From: Gammaproteobacteria bacterium
GTDB lineage: Bacteria > Pseudomonadota > Gammaproteobacteria > UBA1113
DNA length: 7,817 bases
Reading direction: 5' to 3'
Assembly: GCA_019752835.1 (NCBI GenBank)
Contig: JAIELR010000065.1
Coordinates: forward strand, 1 to 7,817
The notes under the pieces are model-generated. The model had not been told where the DNA came from and searched no databases. It worked only from the letters and a program-made list of their open reading frames with translations. Position numbers and translations under genes: made by a program. Below are positions 1 through 7,648 of the stretch, one piece after another. The number at the start of each line of letters is the position of its first letter. Within the stretch, counting starts at the first letter, position 1.

Positions 1-1307
1 TTCTCTCAGCTGCCGCAGGGCTGTCGGTTTTAATGGCTTTAATTAGAGGCCTAGGCCGCAGTGAAACGAAAAATTTGGGCAATTTTTGGCAAGATACTGT
101 ACGAGGTGTTTTGTATATTCTTCTCCCCTTATCCTTGCTCATCAGCGGCCTCCTCGTTGCACAAGGTGTGCCACAAAATATAAAAGCCTATCAAACGACC
201 CATACTCTCCAATCGACGTCAAATCAACCAACACAGGTGATTCCGATGGGGCCGGTTGCGTCCCAAGTAGCTATAAAACAACTGGGGACAAATGGCGGTG
301 GTTTTTTTAATACTAACAGCGCACACCCGTTTGAAAACCCTACTCCTTTTAGCAACTTTATCGAGCTATTAGCCATTTTGCTTATTCCTGCCGCTCTTTG
401 TTATACCTATGGCAGTATGATCAATGACAAGCGTCAGGGTTGGGCTGTGTTAATCGCCATGCTACTTATTTTCGTGCCCGTTACTTTTAGCGTTGTTGCA
501 GCAGAACAGGCGGGCAATCCGACCTTAACACAGCTTGGGGTATTGAACGCACCTCAACCAGGATTGTATTCGGGTGGAAACATGGAAGGTAAAGAGACCC
601 GTTTTGGTATTACAGATTCTGGACTATGGGCCAGTGCAACAACAGCAACGTCGAATGGATCCGTCAACTCCATGCATGACTCCTATATGCCCATCAGTGG
701 ATTTTTGATACTGGTTCTCATGCATTTTGGTGAGGTTATCTTTGGCGGTGTAGGATCTGGTTTATATGGCATGTTAATGCTGATCATTATTACCGTTTTT
801 GTAGCAGGCTTAATGGTCGGACGAACGCCTGAGTTTTTAGGTAAAAAAATCGAGCCCTATGAAATGAAAATGGCCGTCATTGCTGTTTTAGTGATGCCGT
901 TAACCGTATTACTCTTTACGGCGATCGCGGTTCTCATGGCAGCCGGTACCGCGGCCATGGGCAACCCTGGCGCGCAAGGCTTTACGGAAGTACTTTATGC
1001 CTTTACCTCAATGGCCAATAATAATGGCAGTGCTTTCGGCGGCTTAAATGCAAGTACTCCTTTTTATACGCTTTCAGGAACACTGGTGATGTTTCTGGGG
1101 CGATATGGCATTGCGATTCCTGTACTAGCCTTGGCGGGCTCACTGGTCAAAAAGAAAAAAATCCCTATTGGCGCAGGAACACTCCGCACGCATACGCCAC
1201 TTTTCGTCGTTTTACTGATAGGTACCACCATTATTTTAGGTGTATTGTCTTTTTTACCTGCTTTAGCATTAGGCCCTATTGTCGAACAATTAACACTTTG
1301 GGGGTAG
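1..1307 (+). CDS. kdpA: KdpA, potassium-transporting ATPase K+-binding subunit (5' partial)
   Basis: KdpA is the inner-membrane subunit of the KdpFABC pump that binds and conducts K+; it descends from a K+-channel-like superfamily with four pore loops. The frame is open to the left edge (LSAAAGLSVL precedes the first ATG at 33), and this aligns with about residue 139 of the 557-residue E. coli protein. The ATG at 33 is therefore internal, and roughly the first 138 residues, including pore loop 1, lie outside the window. Pore loop 2 (TNGGGFFNTNSAHPFENPT, from 288), loop 3 (around MHDS, 672-683) and loop 4 (NNNGSAFGGL, from 1017) are all present. Other family signatures seen are PMGPVASQ, GEVIFGGVGSGLYGM and GRTPEFLGKKIEPYEMK. 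The C-terminus (FLPALALGPIVEQLTLWG) is intact. kdpB starts 8 bases downstream, so the two are surely cotranscribed. Promoter and any kdpF lie upstream of the window. Identification is near certain. Confidence 0.98.
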   Translation, partial: LSAAAGLSVLMALIRGLGRSETKNLGNFWQDTVRGVLYILLPLSLLISGLLVAQGVPQNIKAYQTTHTLQSTSNQPTQVIPMGPVASQVAIKQLGTNGGGFFNTNSAHPFENPTPFSNFIELLAILLIPAALCYTYGSMINDKRQGWAVLIAMLLIFVPVTFSVVAAEQAGNPTLTQLGVLNAPQPGLYSGGNMEGKETRFGITDSGLWASATTATSNGSVNSMHDSYMPISGFLILVLMHFGEVIFGGVGSGLYGMLMLIIITVFVAGLMVGRTPEFLGKKIEPYEMKMAVIAVLVMPLTVLLFTAIAVLMAAGTAAMGNPGAQGFTEVLYAFTSMANNNGSAFGGLNASTPFYTLSGTLVMFLGRYGIAIPVLALAGSLVKKKKIPIGAGTLRTHTPLFVVLLIGTTIILGVLSFLPALALGPIVEQLTLWG

Positions 1308-1315
1308 TTTAGAAC

Positions 1316-3376
1316 GTGTCAGAATTACAAAAGAAAAAACAGTGGAATAGCAGCATCATCAAAATAGCGCTTAAAGATGCGTTTATGAAACTGACGCCAC
1401 AACATCAATTACATAACCCTGTGATGTTTTGCGTCTATATAGGTTCTATCATTACATCGGTGCTTTATATACAAACTTTTTTTGGAAAAGGCGATGAGGA
1501 TGCGCATTTCATCTTGAGTATTAGCTTGTGGCTGTGGTTTACCGTCATTTTTGCCAATTTTGCTGAAGCAATGGCCGAAGGCCGCGGCAAAGCACAAGCA
1601 CAAAGTTTACGGCAGTCGCGTCGTGACATTCAAGCAAAAAAATTAGCGCACCCCAAGCGCACAGCAACAATAACCCTCACACCTTCAGCCGATTTAGCGG
1701 TGGATGATGTTGTACTTGTTGAAGCAGGTGATTTTATTCCCAGTGATGGGGAGGTCATAGAGGGCATCGCCTCGGTAAATGAAAGTGCCATTACCGGTGA
1801 AAGCGCACCGGTTATTCGCGAGAGTGGTGGCGATCGTTGTGCTGTCACTGGCGGAACACAAGTTATCTCAGATTGGATACTTGTTCGCATCACTGCCAGC
1901 ATGGGTGAAACTTTTTTGGACCATATGATTTCGATGGTCGAAGGGGCAAAACGTCAAAAAACGCCGAATGAAATCGCCTTAAGCATTTTATTAATTGCAT
2001 TAACTTTTGTTTTTTTCCTTGTTTGTGTCTCACTTTATCCTTTTTCAGTGTATGCAGTGGCAAGCACGGGTCTCGGAAAAGTGGTGAGTATCACGGCCCT
2101 AATTGCCTTGTTTGTCTGCTTAGCCCCCACCACCATTGGGGGGTTATTATCCGCGATTGGCATTGCCGGTATGGATCGCATGATACAAGCCAATGTCATT
2201 GCATTATCGGGTCAAGCCGTTGAAGCCGCGGGTGATGTGGATGTATTAATCCTTGATAAAACTGGCACCATTACGCTGGGTAATCGACAAGCTACTGAAT
2301 TTATTCCAGCGGAGGGTGTCTCTATGGAAACCTTGGCCGATGCCGCTCAATTGGCCTCTCTCGCGGACGAAACACCTGAGGGTCGAAGCATCGTTATTTT
2401 AGCCAAACAAAAATACAATTTACGTGGCCGTGAGCTAGCTGAGCTTAATGCGACCTTTATTCCGTTTACCGCTCAGACGAGGATGAGCGGCGCCAATATA
2501 GCCGGGAGACAAATTCGAAAAGGCGCAGCCCAAGCCATTGAATCCTATTTACAAACCATGGGAGGCGTGTTTCCTGACTCTATCCATAAAAGTGTGGAAG
2601 CCATCGCACGGCAAGGCGGAACCCCTATTGTGGTTACGGACGGAAATGTTGCGCTCGGTGTTATTCATCTGAAAGATATTATCAAAGGGGGCATACGAGA
2701 ACGCTTCGTGCAATTACGCCAAATGGGGATTAAAACCATTATGGTCACCGGCGATAATCCATTAACGGCGGCAGCCATTGGTGTGGAAGCGGGTGTCGAT
2801 GATTTTTTAGCAAACGCCAAGCCTGAAGATAAACTCACCTTGATTCGACGGCTCCAAGCCGAGGGACATTTAGTTGCGATGACCGGCGATGGCACTAATG
2901 ATGCCCCTGCCCTCGCCCAGGCAGACGTGGCGGTTGCGATGAATACCGGTACTCAAGCAGCCAAAGAAGCCGGCAACTTGGTTGATCTTGACTCCAACCC
3001 GACTAAGCTGATTGAGGTGGTTGAAATTGGAAAGCAATTATTGATCACTCGAGGGGCTTTGACGACGTGGAGTATCGCGAATGATGTGGCAAAATATTTT
3101 GCTATTTTGCCTGCAGCGTTTGCAACAACGTATCCAGCGCTAGCCGCTTTGAATATCATGCATTTGTCGACGCCTCAACATGCTATTTTGGCTGCCGTCA
3201 TTTTTAATGCGCTCATCATTGTGTTTCTCATTCCACTGGCCTTGCGCGGCGTTCGTTATAAAGCCTTATCCGCTGAACGTCTGTTGCGTAGAAATGTACT
3301 TGTTTATGGTTTGGGTGGTTTGATTGTACCATTTATTGCGATCAAAGTAATTGATTTGTTGTTGGTGTATTTGTAA
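1316..3376 (+). CDS. kdpB: KdpB, potassium-transporting P-type ATPase catalytic subunit
   Basis: KdpB is the ATP-hydrolysing P-type ATPase subunit of KdpFABC. The protein has 686 residues against 682 in E. coli and aligns throughout. Motifs: A-domain TGES (160-163), the equivalent of the E. coli serine-162 inhibitory phosphorylation site; P-domain DKTGTIT with catalytic Asp314; N-domain RKGA with Lys402; MVTGDN (476-481); hinge TGDGTNDAP (523-531). Membrane helices lie near 36-55, 66-86, 219-243, 256-279, 590-612, 621-643 and 660-685. The M5 charged pair is Asp590/Lys593 (NDVAKYFAI). The start is GTG at 1316: it gives an N-terminus one residue longer than E. coli up to the LTPQ/LNPQ landmark, while the next ATG (1385) would remove conserved sequence. 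A GGGGG run at 1300-1304, overlapping the kdpA end, may serve as a ribosome binding site with rather long spacing. Oddity: the M4 motif reads CLAPTTIGG, with Ala270 where E. coli has Ile. Confidence 0.98.
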
Positions 3377-3545: not shown

Positions 3546-4136
3546 TTGCTTATCGTTAAACAAATAAAATCTGCGTTTCTATTACTATTGCTCATGACCC
3601 TACTCACCGGTTTGATCTATCCCCTTGTAGTCACCCTCTTTGCCCAACTTGTTTTTCCCTGGAAAGCAAATGGAAGTCTAATAAGCAACCAAGGTAACAT
3701 AATGGGTTCGGCGTTAATTGGTCAAGAATTTACTGGGCCTAACTATTTTTGGTCGAGACCATCAGCGACACTACCCTTCGCCTATAATGCAGGAAGCTCT
3801 GGGGCATCTAATCTTGGCCCAACGAATCCACTTTTATTGAGCGCTGTTAATAACAGAATCGCACAATTAAAAAAGGCTGATCCGGATAATACACTTGGTA
3901 TTCCCATTGATTTGGTTACGGCATCAGGTAGTGGATTGGATCCTGATATCAGTCCTTATGCAGCGCTTTATCAAGTTCATCGCATTGCAGTAGCACGTAA
4001 CTTACCTGAAACAACGCTTCAAACGTTAATCATGACAATGACTCAATCGCGAAGCTTGTTTTTGTTAGGGGAACCGCGAGTGAATGTATTGAAATTAAAC
4101 TTAGCTTTGGATGGTTTGGGAAATACAGGAACGTAG
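3546..4136 (+). CDS. kdpC: KdpC, potassium-transporting ATPase accessory subunit
   Basis: KdpC is a small single-span subunit of KdpFABC that associates with KdpA and KdpB and is required for transport; in E. coli it has been proposed to raise ATP affinity. The product has 196 residues (E. coli about 190). It begins with an N-terminal membrane helix (about 9-34) ending at FPWKANGSL. Hallmarks follow: GSALIGQEFTGPNYFWSRPSAT (read as two blocks), then SSGASNLGPTNP, the VTASGSGLDPDISPYAA block, RIAVARN, and the C-terminal GEPRVNVLKLNLALD. The start is TTG at 3546, supported by AGAAGGA at 8-base spacing and by alignment of the N-terminus. The 169-base gap from kdpB is unusual, since kdpB and kdpC are commonly adjacent. 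The stop codon (4134-4136) lies inside a GTAGCCC motif that recurs in the repeats downstream, so the last few residues (GNTGT) may have been set by repeat insertion. Function is certain, exact start slightly less so. Confidence 0.95.
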   Translation: MLIVKQIKSAFLLLLLMTLLTGLIYPLVVTLFAQLVFPWKANGSLISNQGNIMGSALIGQEFTGPNYFWSRPSATLPFAYNAGSSGASNLGPTNPLLLSAVNNRIAQLKKADPDNTLGIPIDLVTASGSGLDPDISPYAALYQVHRIAVARNLPETTLQTLIMTMTQSRSLFLLGEPRVNVLKLNLALDGLGNTGT

Positions 4137-4145
4137 CCCGTGTCT

Positions 4146-4251
4146 CGTAGCCTGGATGGAGCGCAGCGGAATCCGGGACAAGGAACCCTGTTAAATGTCA
4201 TTCCCCGGATTCCGCTGCGCTCCATCCAGGCTACGCTCCATCCAGGCTACG
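4146..4251. repeat. REP-type doublet: perfect 32-base inverted repeat plus tandem partial copy
   Basis: The left arm 4146-4177 is the exact reverse complement of 4204-4235, separated by a 26-base loop. Each arm starts on its outer side with GTAG (4147-4150 on +; 4231-4234 on -) followed by an imperfect palindrome (CCTGGAT...ATCCGGG). That is the architecture of REP sequences, which in other proteobacteria are moved by RAYT (TnpA-REP) transposases. Immediately after it, 4236-4251 repeats 4220-4235 exactly (16-base tandem duplication), giving a third partial end. The stem lies between kdpC and kdpD inside the operon. It lacks a following U-run, so it is not a classical terminator, but as RNA it would form a very stable hairpin that could protect upstream mRNA or lower kdpD expression. 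Confidence 0.88.
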
Positions 4252-4266
4252 AAATCATTAACGATT

Positions 4267-4279: not shown

Positions 4280-6931
4280 ATGCCAAACCAACAACGCCCT
4301 GACCCAGAAGCATTACTACAACGTGTACAGAGTGAAGAAAGAGAAGCCTCACAGGGTAAACTTAAAATTTATTTGGGTGCTGCACCAGGGGTAGGGAAAA
4401 CTTATACGATGCTGCAAGATGCCATCGAAAAACTATCCCAAGGTCTCGATATTGTTGTGGGGGTCGTTGAATCACATGGCCGCAAAGAAATCCAAGCCCT
4501 GATAAGTCGTTTTGACATTTTACCTCGCAAAGATATTGAGTATCGCGATAGAACACTCCAGGAATTCGATTTAGATGCCGCTATCAAACGCAATCCCGGA
4601 TTGATTTTGATGGATGAAATGGCTCATACCAACGCCCCAGGTTTGCAGCATGAAAAACGTTGGCAAGACATTAAAGAGTTACTTGACCGCGGACTGGATG
4701 TTTATACCACCCTGAATGTGCAACACATTGAAAGTTTGAATGATATTATCCTGCAAATTACCAATATCACCGTAAAAGAAACCGTTCCTGACTCCATGCT
4801 GGAAATAGCTCATACAATAGAGTTGGTTGATTTGCCGCCCGATGATCTTTTAAGACGGCTTGAAGAAGGAAAAGTATATTTTCCCAAACAGGCTGAGCTT
4901 GCGCGCGAATCTTTTTTTCGTATGGGAAACTTAATCGCGTTGCGCGAACTTGCCTTGCGTATCACAGCGGAGCGAGTAGGCACTGATGTTTTACTCTATC
5001 GACATGATCAAGGAATTAGACGTATCTGGCCAACGAAAGAAAAAATTTTGGTATGCGTTGGACATCATACCGGCTCAGCCCGACTGATTCGAGCGGCTAA
5101 GCGCATGGCGGTCAATTTGCAAGCGGAATGGATGGCTATTTATGTTGACTCTGCACGATTCAGAACCTCTGAAGAAAAGCGTAAGATAGCCATACAAAAT
5201 TTATCCCTAGCTGGACGTTTGGGGGCACAAACGCATATTTTAACAGGTTTAGACCTTGTTAAAGAAATCATGGATTTTGCTCACGAAAAAAATATAACTC
5301 AAATTATTGTGGGCAAAGAAATTCGTCCGCGATGGCGCGGCCTATTTATGCGAAGTTTAGCGGATGAAGTCGTACGCCAAAGTGGCGAAATTGATGTTTA
5401 CATCATGACACGGGAAGTTAATCGATCTAAACGAAAACCAGTCTCGTATTCTCATCCAACAATACCCTGGAACATTTATGGTTATGCACTGGGTATCATT
5501 GGGGTCATTACAGGTATTGGTCTCCTGATTCAGGGTTATGTATCGGACGCCAATGTGATCATGCTCTATTTGTTTGGTGTAATTCTTATCGCTTTATTCG
5601 GACAACTCGCTCCTGCCGTTATTGGCTCATTATTGAGCGTTATCGCTTATGCCGTGTTCTTTGTTCCACCTCATTTTAGTTTCAGTATTGCCAATATCCA
5701 ATATGATATTACCCTTACGGTAATGCTAATTAGTACCCTACTCATTAGTCAATTAACCGTTATCTCACGCCGCCAGGCACTGGAGGCTCGCCTTGCCGAA
5801 CAACGAGCAAGTACGTTGTATACGCTCAGTCATAAATTGGCTAGCTTACGAGGGGTTGATAAGATTATTGACGCTGCAACCCAGTATCTTTCAGAGATTT
5901 TTAATGCAAATACACTTATTTTATTACCCAAAGAGCATCATCTCATCATACGAGGGGAGGCTGAAAAAAAAGACTTGTTAAGTGAAAAAGAACAGGCGGT
6001 TGCTCAATGGGTCTATGAGCTTGGCCAACGCGCGGGCATAGGAACCGATAACCTCCCTTCGTCAGAAGCCCTCTATGTACCCTTGTTAGCCTTACAAGGT
6101 ACTATTGGTGTCCTAAGAGTTAAACCAGCTAAACAACTGCTCACCTATGAACAACTCCACCTACTTGAGGCATGTGCAAATCAAATTGCTCTCGCTATTG
6201 AGGTCGATCGCTTGCAAGACAAACGAAAAAAATCAGAATGGGAGTTTGAAACAAGGCAAACACGCCATGCACTATTACAATCAGTCTCTCGTGATTTGGA
6301 TTTTTCCTTGGTGAAAGTTAAAGCAGCGACAAGTAGGCTCTTGAAAGAGAGGGCGCAATTGGGTCATAAATTGAGCACCGAATTAATTGAGAATATTTAT
6401 GTTGAATCCGAAGAAATCAGCCACTTGATTAATAACTTGTTGCAAATAAGCCACTTGGAAACAGAAAGGCTTGCGTTGAAAAAAGAATCCCATTCGCTAC
6501 ATGATATTGTTACTATTGTGATTGACTTATCCTGTCAAAAATTAACTAAAAAAGAGATTAAACTTAATATTCCAGAAAAATTGCCTAATACCCTCGTCGA
6601 TAAAGCATTAATCCAAGAAGTTTTTTTAAACTTAATTGATAATGCGGTTAAATTTTCAACCACTGAAACGCCCATCCTCATCAATATTGTCGGTGAGAAC
6701 GATAAAATTATCACCAGCGTAGAAGATCAGGGTATAGGTATCGCACCCGACGAAGTTAATAAGTTATTTGATAAATTTTATCGTGGTCGGATGACAACGA
6801 CTCAGCGAGGGGTTGGCTTGGGTTTAACCATTTGTCGCATGATTATTGAAGCGCATGGTGGTAAGATATGGGCTCAAAACAGAAATACGGGCGGCGCTGT
6901 TTTTTACTTTAGTCTGCCTGTTGTAAAGTAG
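4280..6931 (+). CDS. kdpD: KdpD, K+-responsive sensor protein with a degenerate histidine box
   Basis: KdpD is the membrane sensor that in E. coli phosphorylates and dephosphorylates KdpE to control kdpFABC. The product has 883 residues (E. coli 894). Order of parts: N-terminal KdpD domain with Walker A GAAPGVGKT (33-41) and LILMDE (108-113); Usp-like domain (about 254-375); four membrane helices (about 398-418, 424-441, 443-462, 476-495) followed by an Arg-rich stretch; GAF-like region (about 507-640); dimerisation helices (about 655-730); C-terminal ATPase domain with N-box FLNLIDNAVKF (Asn788), DQGIGI (from 816), FDKF (830-833) and GVGLGL (844-849). The key oddity is the H-box: E. coli SHDLRTPL is here SRDLDFSL, with Arg671 (codon CGT at 6290-6292) replacing the phospho-acceptor His. 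The phosphatase-type Thr and the Pro are also lost. No kdpE follows; orn does. Canonical autophosphorylation is therefore not expected, although ATP binding looks retained. Its TAG stop lies in a repeat end. Confidence 0.96.
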   Translation: MPNQQRPDPEALLQRVQSEEREASQGKLKIYLGAAPGVGKTYTMLQDAIEKLSQGLDIVVGVVESHGRKEIQALISRFDILPRKDIEYRDRTLQEFDLDAAIKRNPGLILMDEMAHTNAPGLQHEKRWQDIKELLDRGLDVYTTLNVQHIESLNDIILQITNITVKETVPDSMLEIAHTIELVDLPPDDLLRRLEEGKVYFPKQAELARESFFRMGNLIALRELALRITAERVGTDVLLYRHDQGIRRIWPTKEKILVCVGHHTGSARLIRAAKRMAVNLQAEWMAIYVDSARFRTSEEKRKIAIQNLSLAGRLGAQTHILTGLDLVKEIMDFAHEKNITQIIVGKEIRPRWRGLFMRSLADEVVRQSGEIDVYIMTREVNRSKRKPVSYSHPTIPWNIYGYALGIIGVITGIGLLIQGYVSDANVIMLYLFGVILIALFGQLAPAVIGSLLSVIAYAVFFVPPHFSFSIANIQYDITLTVMLISTLLISQLTVISRRQALEARLAEQRASTLYTLSHKLASLRGVDKIIDAATQYLSEIFNANTLILLPKEHHLIIRGEAEKKDLLSEKEQAVAQWVYELGQRAGIGTDNLPSSEALYVPLLALQGTIGVLRVKPAKQLLTYEQLHLLEACANQIALAIEVDRLQDKRKKSEWEFETRQTRHALLQSVSRDLDFSLVKVKAATSRLLKERAQLGHKLSTELIENIYVESEEISHLINNLLQISHLETERLALKKESHSLHDIVTIVIDLSCQKLTKKEIKLNIPEKLPNTLVDKALIQEVFLNLIDNAVKFSTTETPILINIVGENDKIITSVEDQGIGIAPDEVNKLFDKFYRGRMTTTQRGVGLGLTICRMIIEAHGGKIWAQNRNTGGAVFYFSLPVVK

Positions 6932-6938: not shown

Positions 6939-7000
6939 TGTAGGGGCAACCCCCCGTGGTTGCCCAAAGACGGGCGGCCACGGGGGGCCCGCCCCTACAA
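6938..7000. repeat. Imperfect GC-rich palindrome of the GTAGGGGC type
   Basis: Outer ends TTGTAGGGGC (6938-6947) and GCCCCTACAA (6991-7000) are perfect complements. So are CCCCCCGTGG (6950-6959) and CCACGGGGGG (6978-6987), and GCCC (6962-6965) with GGGC (6972-6975), around an AAAGAC loop at 6966-6971. The interruptions are AA versus CCC and TT versus GG. The base composition is far more GC-rich than the surrounding genes. It resembles short non-coding palindromic elements dispersed in many bacterial genomes. There is no U-run, so it is not a standard terminator, though a strong RNA stem is expected between kdpD and orn. Confidence 0.8.
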
Positions 7001-7032
7001 CAGCCTTCGTGCGTAATGATGAGGTGCTTTTA

Positions 7033-7064
7033 CCCGGATTGCGCTGCGCTTCATCCGGGCTACG
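7033..7064 (-). repeat. REP-type element upstream of orn
   Basis: This matches 29 of 32 bases of the right REP arm at 4204-4235, in the same orientation, with the GTAG head on the minus strand (CTAC at 7060-7063). Its own CCCGGAT...ATCCGGG ends form a 7-base stem. It finishes 26 bases before the proposed orn start, so it would lie in the orn leader unless transcription starts within the 26 bases that follow it. Confidence 0.82.
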
Positions 7065-7077
7065 GTATGATTATTTT

Positions 7078-7082
7078 AGGAG
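7078..7082 (+). promoter_or_regulatory. Ribosome binding site deciding the orn TTG start
   Basis: AGGAG is followed by 8 bases and then the TTG at 7091. It lies inside the coding sequence if the ATG at 7067 were used, and that ATG has only REP sequence upstream, with no comparable site. An out-of-frame ATG at 7086 would give a peptide of five residues. Confidence 0.65.
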
Positions 7083-7090
7083 TCCATGAA

Positions 7091-7648
7091 TTGCCACAAT
7101 TAGAAACCAATCTCATCTGGGTTGATCTTGAAATGACAGGATTAAACCCACAAACCGATCGTATTATTGAAATCGCCACAATAGTCACCGATGCTCAGTT
7201 AAATTTGATTGCAGAAGGCCCAGTGTTTGCGATATTTCAACCAGATGTGGTTTTATCAACCATGGATAGTTGGAATGTAAAACATCATAATGAATCGGGT
7301 TTAATCAAGCGCGTTAAAGAAAGCAAAATCACCGAAGAGGAGGCCTCTCGCTTGACCCTCGATTTTATAAAACAATATGTTCCTGAAAAAACATCTCCTC
7401 TTTGTGGCAACAGTGTTTGTCAAGATAAGCGCTTTTTGGCGCTACATATGCCTGTGCTAGATCAATATTTTCATTATCGTTTAATTGATGTGAGTACATT
7501 GAAAGAGTTGATGATGCGCTGGCGACCTGATTTAAAAGAGGGATTCAAAAAAGCATCAAAGCATCAGGCGTTGGATGATATTCGAGAATCGATTGAGGAG
7601 TTGAAGTATTATCGGGAGCATTTTATTCGGTGGGAGAAGGAGGGTTAA
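7091..7648 (+). CDS. orn: Oligoribonuclease (3'-5' exoribonuclease)
   Basis: Orn degrades very short RNAs, chiefly dinucleotides including pGpG, to mononucleotides in the cytoplasm; it finishes mRNA turnover and cyclic-di-GMP breakdown. From the TTG at 7091 the product is 185 residues (E. coli 181). The DEDDh catalytic residues fall at Asp12 and Glu14 (WVDLEMTG), Asp112 ([11 protein letters not shown]), His158 and Asp163 ([11 protein letters not shown]), exactly the E. coli numbering. Further signatures are [25 protein letters not shown] and YYREHFI. The TTG start is chosen for this numbering and for AGGAG 8 bases upstream. The in-frame ATG at 7067 would add eight residues and lacks a ribosome binding site. 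The frame stays open further upstream only because it reads through repeats. The gene is on the same strand as the kdp operon but functionally unrelated, and the repeat block probably separates the transcription units. No terminator was found downstream. Confidence 0.95.

What the first reader, a model, noticed from the sequence alone, without database searches (positions are those of the whole stretch)
6275..6313. Full-length KdpD whose phospho-acceptor histidine is replaced by arginine
The H-box that reads SHDLRTPL in E. coli KdpD reads SRDLDFSL here. His becomes Arg671, while the neighbouring Asp is kept. The +4 Thr, which in HisKA-family kinases supports phosphatase activity, is Phe, and the Pro is Ser. 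By the known mechanism the protein should neither autophosphorylate nor dephosphorylate a partner. Yet the frame is open for 883 codons, and Walker A, the Usp-like domain, the membrane segments and the N, G1, F and G2 boxes of the ATPase domain all look intact. Several neighbouring changes argue against a single sequencing error. This suggests selection for a non-canonical role, such as an ATP-binding scaffold or a K+ or nucleotide sensor acting by protein contact.
Basis: partly seen in the sequence, partly recalled or inferred. Interest (0 to 1): 0.85.

Follow-up and report, generated by a model that had tools for sequence, protein, structure and literature searches.

The report
KdpD lacking its kinase histidine
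A bacterial potassium sensor has lost the amino acid it would need to talk to a gene regulator, most likely because that regulator is gone and the protein now only acts as a brake on the potassium pump.

Summary
kdpD (4280-6931, 883 aa) has Arg671 (CGT, 6290-6292) where E. coli has its phospho-acceptor His; the H-box reads SRDLDFSL. The rest of the protein looks intact.

It is not unique. Among its relatives, many from the order that contains Legionella, His has been lost repeatedly (R, Q, Y, N, T, K, D, F), or the histidine-kinase core is missing altogether (about 650 aa). No response regulator follows kdpD in any of 63 related loci with enough downstream DNA. In a class-wide sample, 28 of 28 KdpDs with an adjacent KdpE keep the His; of 8 without one, 3 do.

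What is conserved is the N-terminal Walker domain, which in E. coli is a serine kinase that phosphorylates KdpB Ser162 and stops the pump, and works without His673 or the whole histidine-kinase core (Silberberg 2024). Best reading: this KdpD is a serine-kinase brake on KdpFABC, not a two-component sensor. A c-di-AMP cyclase was not found in 140 of 140 sampled genomes of the Legionella order, so the kept membrane and GAF domains are the probable K+ input. The ATPase (CA) domain stays constrained, which is unexplained.

The parts
3..1307 (+). kdpA, 5' end cut by the window
   Evidence: Pfam KdpA E 8e-180, profile 144-548
1316..3376 (+). kdpB, pump ATPase; TGES163 is the counterpart of E. coli Ser162, the serine-kinase target
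   Evidence: NCBIfam TIGR01497 1051 bits; TGES at 160-163
3546..4136 (+). kdpC
   Evidence: Pfam KdpC E 5.3e-73
4280..6931 (+). kdpD, 883 aa, full length, His-less
4376..4402 (+). Walker A, GAAPGVGKT (residues 33-41), serine-kinase ATP site
   Evidence: G39/K40/T41 present in 33 of 33 His-less rows (window included) and 19 of 19 truncated rows
4613..4618 (+). Walker B Asp112-Glu113, counterpart of E. coli D109/E110
   Evidence: present in 33 of 33 His-less and 19 of 19 truncated rows
4856..4858 (+). Arg193, counterpart of E. coli R190 (adenine contact)
   Evidence: present in 33 of 33 and 19 of 19
5039..5383 (+). Usp domain (residues 254-368)
   Evidence: Pfam
5477..6202 (+). membrane (DUF4118) and GAF domains (residues 400-641), the K+-sensing region in E. 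coli
   Evidence: Pfam; role in E. coli from PMC11018627
6287..6310 (+). H-box SRDLDFSL; Arg671 codon CGT at 6290-6292
6599..6922 (+). HATPase_c (CA) domain, residues 774-881, boxes intact
   Evidence: Pfam E 2e-28; boxes
6956..7648 (+). oligoribonuclease-like gene (RNase_T) directly after kdpD, where kdpE would lie
   Evidence: Pfam E 2.9e-35

Best explanation
This KdpD no longer works as a two-component histidine kinase. It is kept as the post-translational brake of the KdpFABC pump: at high K+ its N-terminal Walker domain phosphorylates KdpB on the TGES serine and stops uptake. The response regulator KdpE was lost from this group, which freed the phospho-acceptor site to decay; here His became Arg, probably after Thr and Pro had changed. 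The input is probably K+ itself, through the retained membrane and GAF domains, because c-di-AMP cyclases were not found in a related order. Shown here: the substitution, its recurrence, no adjacent KdpE, intact serine-kinase residues, no cyclase found in relatives. Shown by others in E. coli: the serine-kinase reaction and its independence of His673 and of the DHp-CA region. Inferred: that this protein does the same, and that KdpE is missing from its genome.
For: No response regulator lies within 1000 bp downstream of kdpD in 63 of 63 loci with at least 600 bp there (28 with His, 17 His-less including the window, 18 truncated; 4 more loci too short). KdpE search: 0 of 140 genomes of the Legionella-containing order at E<=1e-40; controls in the same tool 1.7e-85 (Caballeronia) and 7.8e-58 (Anaerotruncus). 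Class-wide sample: His kept in 28 of 28 KdpDs with adjacent KdpE, 3 of 8 without (2 His-less, 3 truncated), Fisher p 1.5e-4; without the three truncated ones, which I added by choice, p 0.019; no correction for kinship. Serine-kinase residues GKT, DE, R are present in 33 of 33 His-less and 19 of 19 truncated rows, while histidine-kinase boxes erode in the His-less rows (G1 Asp 24 of 33, first G2 Gly 24 of 33, against 127 and 128 of 128 in His rows). Since the split from P0003/P0004 the window has changed more than both in DHp only (0.715 against 0.484 and 0.528 per site), not in the other five domains. KdpB serine kept in 20 of 20 kdpB genes that cover it. E. coli H673A and deletion of DHp-CA keep the inhibitory phosphorylation (PMC11018627, passages). 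DAC domain: 0 of 140 genomes, control 11 of 14.
Against: 28 related loci without an adjacent response regulator keep the His, so loss of KdpE does not by itself explain the change. The CA domain is still constrained in His-less clades (omega 0.048-0.101), and in the window it changed less than in its sisters (0.257 against 0.508 and 0.514), which a useless domain should not do. The DHp excess of the window over P0003/P0004 is only about 1.4-fold, on some 80 columns, untested for significance. TGES is a general P-type ATPase motif (known biology), so its retention is weak evidence. The window's genome is not held: KdpE could lie elsewhere in it. Adjacent KdpE-like genes scored as weakly as 4.2e-41 in a divergent genome, and only up to 21 candidates per genome were scored, so that absence is not absolute.
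Confidence: 0.72

Rival explanations
1. Histidine pseudokinase that acts by dimerising with another sensor kinase, or by titrating a response regulator, as the ChrS pseudokinase does with HrrS.
For: The core is kept and constrained in His-less clades: omega DHp 0.017-0.086, CA 0.048-0.101; CA of the window changed less than in its sisters. Precedent: ChrS pseudokinase and HrrS form heterodimers (PMC9491836, abstract).
Against: Relatives have dropped the whole core (19 truncated rows; truncated against not needs 7 changes on the tree, 6 forced) and keep the rest, so the core is dispensable there. No partner could be sought in the window's genome.
Confidence: 0.14
2. Early pseudogene: kdpD as a whole is decaying and the missing His is its first sign.
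For: Spacers on both sides of kdpD hold palindromic repeats, and DHp changed more than in the sisters.
Against: Open for 883 codons; since the split from P0003/P0004 the window changed no more than them in ASK (0.116; 0.179 and 0.094) and less in Usp, TM, GAF and CA; all Walker residues intact.
Confidence: 0.06
3. Sequencing or assembly error at the H-box.
For: Only one contig of this lineage is known and no reads could be checked.
Against: Four residues of the motif differ in frame; the sister lineages already differ from SHDLRTPL at two of the changed places (S shared, V against F); 13 of 119 listed relatives lack the His too.
Confidence: 0.04
4. A nearby His, e.g. His663, has taken over as phospho-acceptor and an unlinked regulator is the target.
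For: His663 lies eight residues upstream, probably in the same helix; the three sisters have Asn there. CA boxes are intact.
Against: Eight residues is about 80 degrees off round a helix (inference), and none of the other 32 His-less rows has a His there.
Confidence: 0.03

Closest known systems
E. coli KdpD, tandem serine/histidine kinase (PMC11018627)
   Same: Same domain order; Walker A and B and R190 counterparts kept; downstream of kdpABC; target serine in KdpB kept.
   Different: No phospho-acceptor His, no KdpE in the operon, Tyr instead of Trp39 (Tyr is also found in KdpDs next to a KdpE, e.g. L032).
KdpD with truncated DHp-CA (Campylobacterota and Archaea in PMC11018627; Legionella and relatives here)
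   Same: Serine-kinase half, membrane and GAF domains kept; no KdpE next to it.
   Different: The window keeps the full histidine-kinase core; only the acceptor site is lost.
Short KdpD/Usp protein of Deinococcus geothermalis, c-di-AMP controlled (PMC11018627); NCBIfam NF038185 'KdpD-like non-kinase potassium sensor'
   Same: Serine-kinase and Usp domains without histidine-kinase activity.
   Different: The window keeps the K+-sensing membrane and GAF domains; c-di-AMP cyclase was not found in a related order. It scores 363.8 bits against NF038185, below its 550 cut-off.
Histidine pseudokinases such as ChrS of C. glutamicum (PMC9491836, abstract)
   Same: A sensor kinase without its own kinase activity that still has an effect.
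   Different: The ChrS form arose by a frameshift in its CA domain in laboratory evolution; here the CA domain is kept and the acceptor lost in nature.

Membership tests
KdpD family | KdpD, Usp, DUF4118, GAF and HATPase_c domains in this order | tested here: met
   Pfam, all above cut-off; 40% identity to E. coli KdpD over 99%. The NCBIfam KdpD equivalog PRK10490 is its best match but below cut-off (796.6 of 1123 bits)
KdpDE two-component system | phospho-acceptor His in the H-box | tested here: not met
   Arg671
KdpDE two-component system | KdpE encoded next to kdpD | tested here: not met
   oligoribonuclease-like gene follows; no regulator within the 886 bp after kdpD
KdpDE two-component system | KdpE anywhere in the genome | not testable with these tools
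   window genome not held; no match at E<=1e-40 in 140 of 140 genomes of a related order
KdpD atypical serine kinase | Walker A G-X5-GKT, Walker B DE and R190 counterpart | tested here: met
KdpD atypical serine kinase | KdpB Glu-Ser target (TGES) | tested here: met
   weak, since TGES is general to P-type ATPases
KdpD atypical serine kinase | phosphate transfer from ATP to KdpB | not testable with these tools
   needs purified proteins
c-di-AMP controlled short KdpD | diadenylate cyclase in the genome | tested here: inconclusive
   0 of 140 genomes of a related order; the window's genome not held

The most novel reading that the evidence does not exclude
The order of Legionella and its neighbours contain a natural class of full-length, K+-gated, serine-only KdpD. 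After the loss of KdpE the acceptor His was discarded many times, while the ATP-binding CA domain stayed under selection, perhaps as an ATP or dimer-state input to the N-terminal serine kinase.
Probability: 0.35. Interest if true: 0.65.

Novelty: new variant of a known kind. Interest (0 to 1): 0.5.

Why it matters
Evolution appears to have run, many times, the experiment done in E. coli with H673A: remove the histidine kinase and keep the serine kinase. If so, this supports the claim that braking the pump is the core function of KdpD. It also gives a set of proteins in which the serine kinase can be studied without histidine-kinase activity and probably without c-di-AMP, and raises the question what an ATPase domain is for once its acceptor is gone. 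Source names, where given, still call such relatives sensor histidine kinases.

Tried and rejected
Single read error and early pseudogene: judged unlikely from the motif pattern in sisters and the domain-wise path lengths. c-di-AMP input: made unlikely for the related order. A first reading, by end branches alone, suggested that DHp of the window sped up three- to six-fold; end branches of P0003 and P0004 are shorter in time, and the fair path from the shared node gives about 1.4-fold. The confidence was lowered from 0.75 to 0.72 for that. Pairwise dN/dS by YN00 failed for many domains and pairs, mostly through saturation of synonymous sites; the tree-based omega values (read out of the logs; one search failed to read them) share that weakness. 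dN/dS on the window itself was not done: no DNA of P0002-P0004 was to hand. Structure prediction was not run, since a family alignment would give the same fold with or without the His. The first version of the class-wide His table picked wrong reading frames in several loci and is superseded. Paper searches listed no title or abstract start that reports His-less full-length KdpD or a truncated Legionella KdpD; only PMC11018627 (abstract, sections 8 and 9, passages) and PMC9491836 (abstract) were opened, and the supplements of PMC11018627, which may list such cases, could not be read.

Full report
OBSERVATION. The window holds kdpA (5' end cut), kdpB, kdpC, kdpD and an oligoribonuclease-like gene, all on the + strand. 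kdpD starts at ATG 4280 and ends at 6931. The codon 6290-6292 is CGT, Arg671, in the column of E. coli KdpD His673. The H-box reads SRDLDFSL. The other domains are found by Pfam above their cut-offs; HisKA is below its cut-off and matches only past the H-box.

RELATIVES. A protein search with residues 395-883 found 3588 proteins and listed the best 120, the window included. In their alignment 106 of 119 relatives keep the His; 13 do not (R 6, Q 6, Y 1). The nearest three (P0002-P0004, 56-57% identity over the searched region; P0004 73% over 637 columns of the first 645 residues) read SHDLRVSL: Thr and Pro had changed while His was kept. P0003 is named by its source as from a Legionellales bacterium.

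LOCI. The search for related loci gave 30 loci. In 13 of them (L006, L008-L019) the KdpD frame ends at 645-656 aa, just before the histidine-kinase core; nine of these records are named as Legionella. Two whole-genome searches added more: 24 of 36 genomes of one unnamed order (all 25 matches became loci) and 60 of 140 genomes of the order that holds the L. steigerwaltii genome (64 matches, of which 30 were read). I chose those 30 as the ten best and 20 full-length ones, so truncated copies are under-represented. Among the 30, 16 lack the His (K, Q, N, Y, D, T, F, R at that place) and 14 keep it. The 16 include four of a more distant KdpD type at 36-38% identity to the window (L085-L088). Two genomes (G080, G091) carry such a full-length His-less KdpD and a second match that stops at about residue 647 in a frame of 651-660 aa (the second copies were not fetched).

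HOW OFTEN. A FastTree tree of the first 645 residues (150 rows; two fragments and four short rows left out, 13 duplicates removed) holds 113 His, 18 His-less and 19 truncated rows. The His-less state needs 14 changes against the rest (10 forced by well supported branches) and truncation 7 (6 forced). Such counts do not tell loss from regain, and the program warned about long branches (L005, L007, L020, L021), so they are approximate. With the 30 added loci the rows are 128 His, 33 His-less, 19 truncated, 4 outgroup (of which L020 is also without His), 2 fragments.

KDPE. No response regulator lies within 1000 bp downstream of kdpD in 63 of 63 loci with at least 600 bp there (28 His, 17 His-less including the window, 18 truncated); four further loci were too short. 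Two outgroup loci were left out of that count: L021 (Anaerotruncus) has the His and a KdpE-like gene next to it; L020 (a Parachlamydiaceae MAG) has Gln and none was found. These loci were picked as relatives of the window and are not an independent sample. In ten loci whose next gene was scanned, none gave a response regulator: porin families in three, an esterase-like and an acyl-CoA synthetase-like protein, a GGDEF protein, alanine dehydrogenase, others on the opposite strand, one without a match. Genome-wide, E. coli KdpE finds 0 of 140 genomes at E<=1e-40 in the Legionella-containing order (up to 21 candidates scored per genome), and in the other order at best 2.6e-39 and at most 42% identity, in genomes with and without kdpD alike. 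The same search finds Caballeronia KdpE at 1.7e-85 and that of Anaerotruncus, another phylum, at 7.8e-58. Some divergent but adjacent KdpE-like genes score only 4e-41 to 7e-46 (G228, G364, G468), so the absence is strong but not absolute.

CONTROL ACROSS THE CLASS. Of 369 genomes sampled from the class of L022, titled Gammaproteobacteria, 48 have a KdpD match (51 matches) and 65 a KdpE-like match at E<=1e-40. I read 36 KdpD loci: 30 returned as loci and 6 fetched by choice, three truncated and three full length. The other 15 matches each cover only part of E. coli KdpD and were not classified. Adjacent KdpE was judged by contig and distance. His is kept in 28 of 28 with adjacent KdpE; without adjacent KdpE 3 keep it, 2 lack it, 3 are truncated. 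Fisher p is 1.5e-4, or 0.019 without the truncated ones, neither corrected for shared ancestry. Of the 3 His keepers, G541 has a KdpE-like match on another contig; G020 and G485 have no close one.

WHAT IS KEPT. The residues that E. coli KdpD needs to phosphorylate KdpB (Walker A GKT, Walker B DE, R190) are present in 33 of 33 His-less and 19 of 19 truncated rows, and in all His rows with a residue there (120-124 of 128). Trp39 is Tyr or His in His-less and truncated rows and Tyr, His or Phe in His rows; Tyr is also seen next to a KdpE (L032). Histidine-kinase boxes erode in the His-less rows: G1 Asp 24 of 33, first G2 Gly 24 of 33, against 127 and 128 of 128. The window itself has them all. 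The KdpB serine is kept in 20 of 20 kdpB genes that cover it, but TGES is general to P-type ATPases.

RATES. On a fixed tree of ten proteins, paths from the node shared with P0003 and P0004 are, for window, P0003, P0004: serine-kinase domain 0.116, 0.179, 0.094; Usp 0.120, 0.186, 0.135; membrane 0.415, 0.595, 0.620; GAF 0.267, 0.425, 0.328; DHp 0.715, 0.484, 0.528; CA 0.257, 0.508, 0.514 changes per site. DHp is the only one of six domains in which the window changed more than both sisters, by about 1.4-fold, and CA changed half as much as in them; no significance test was made. From the older node with P0002 the window exceeds P0002 in all six domains, most in DHp (0.820 against 0.233). In three His-less clades (15 of the 20 His-less loci) omega is 0.025-0.044 for the serine-kinase domain, 0.017-0.086 for DHp and 0.048-0.101 for CA; in two sets of His loci (18 of 28) 0.035-0.047, 0.049-0.066 and 0.050-0.067. 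The core is thus constrained in all, more weakly in two of the three His-less clades. One His-less pair with unsaturated sites (L007/L081) gives dN/dS 0.198 for the core and 0.056 for the serine-kinase domain; His pairs give 0.031-0.120 for the core. Synonymous sites are saturated in many other pairs.

MECHANISM. Silberberg et al. 2024 (PMC11018627; abstract, sections 8 and 9, passages of others) showed that E. coli KdpD phosphorylates KdpB Ser162 with its N-terminal Walker domain at high K+, that H673A and deletion of DHp-CA leave this intact, and that the activity responds to K+ in a membrane mimic. In their survey of 5495 species, KdpDs without histidine-kinase domains are predominantly found where KdpE is missing, and they conclude that the serine kinase is the more conserved activity. 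The window fits this, with the difference that the core is full length and only its acceptor site is lost. In the short KdpD that they tested c-di-AMP is the input; the cyclase domain was found in 0 of 140 genomes of the Legionella-containing order (11 of 14 control genomes positive), so the K+-sensing membrane and GAF domains are the likelier input. That this protein phosphorylates its KdpB is inferred.

OPEN. Why 28 loci without an adjacent regulator keep a His, and why CA stays constrained in His-less proteins, is not explained. Possible answers are an unlinked regulator, or a role of the core in dimerisation or ATP sensing for the serine kinase.

Noticed in passing
window 4146-4252 and 7023-7064: Palindromic repeats in the spacers on both sides of kdpD: a 32-nt perfect inverted repeat (26 nt between the arms) between kdpC and kdpD and an 83-89% similar copy before the oligoribonuclease gene; in many relatives kdpC and kdpD overlap or nearly touch.
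   Followed up: partly
L006, L008-L019: KdpD frames ending at 645-656 aa, without the histidine-kinase core, in nine records named Legionella and four other records.
   Followed up: yes
L086, L087 (genomes G080, G091): Each genome has two KdpD matches, one stopping at about 650 aa and one full length without the acceptor His.
   Followed up: partly
L118 (genome G193): A KdpD with SADLRSPL (His to Ala) and no KdpE-like match at E<=1e-40.
   Followed up: no
L104 (genome G489): kdpD match with six internal stops, and the adjacent kdpE match with three; the operon looks decayed or badly assembled.
   Followed up: no
genomes G119 and G153: KdpD matches split into separate N-terminal and C-terminal pieces.
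   Followed up: no
window 6956-7648: The listed start (GTG 6956) of the oligoribonuclease-like gene is probably too far upstream; the Pfam match begins at residue 54.
   Followed up: no
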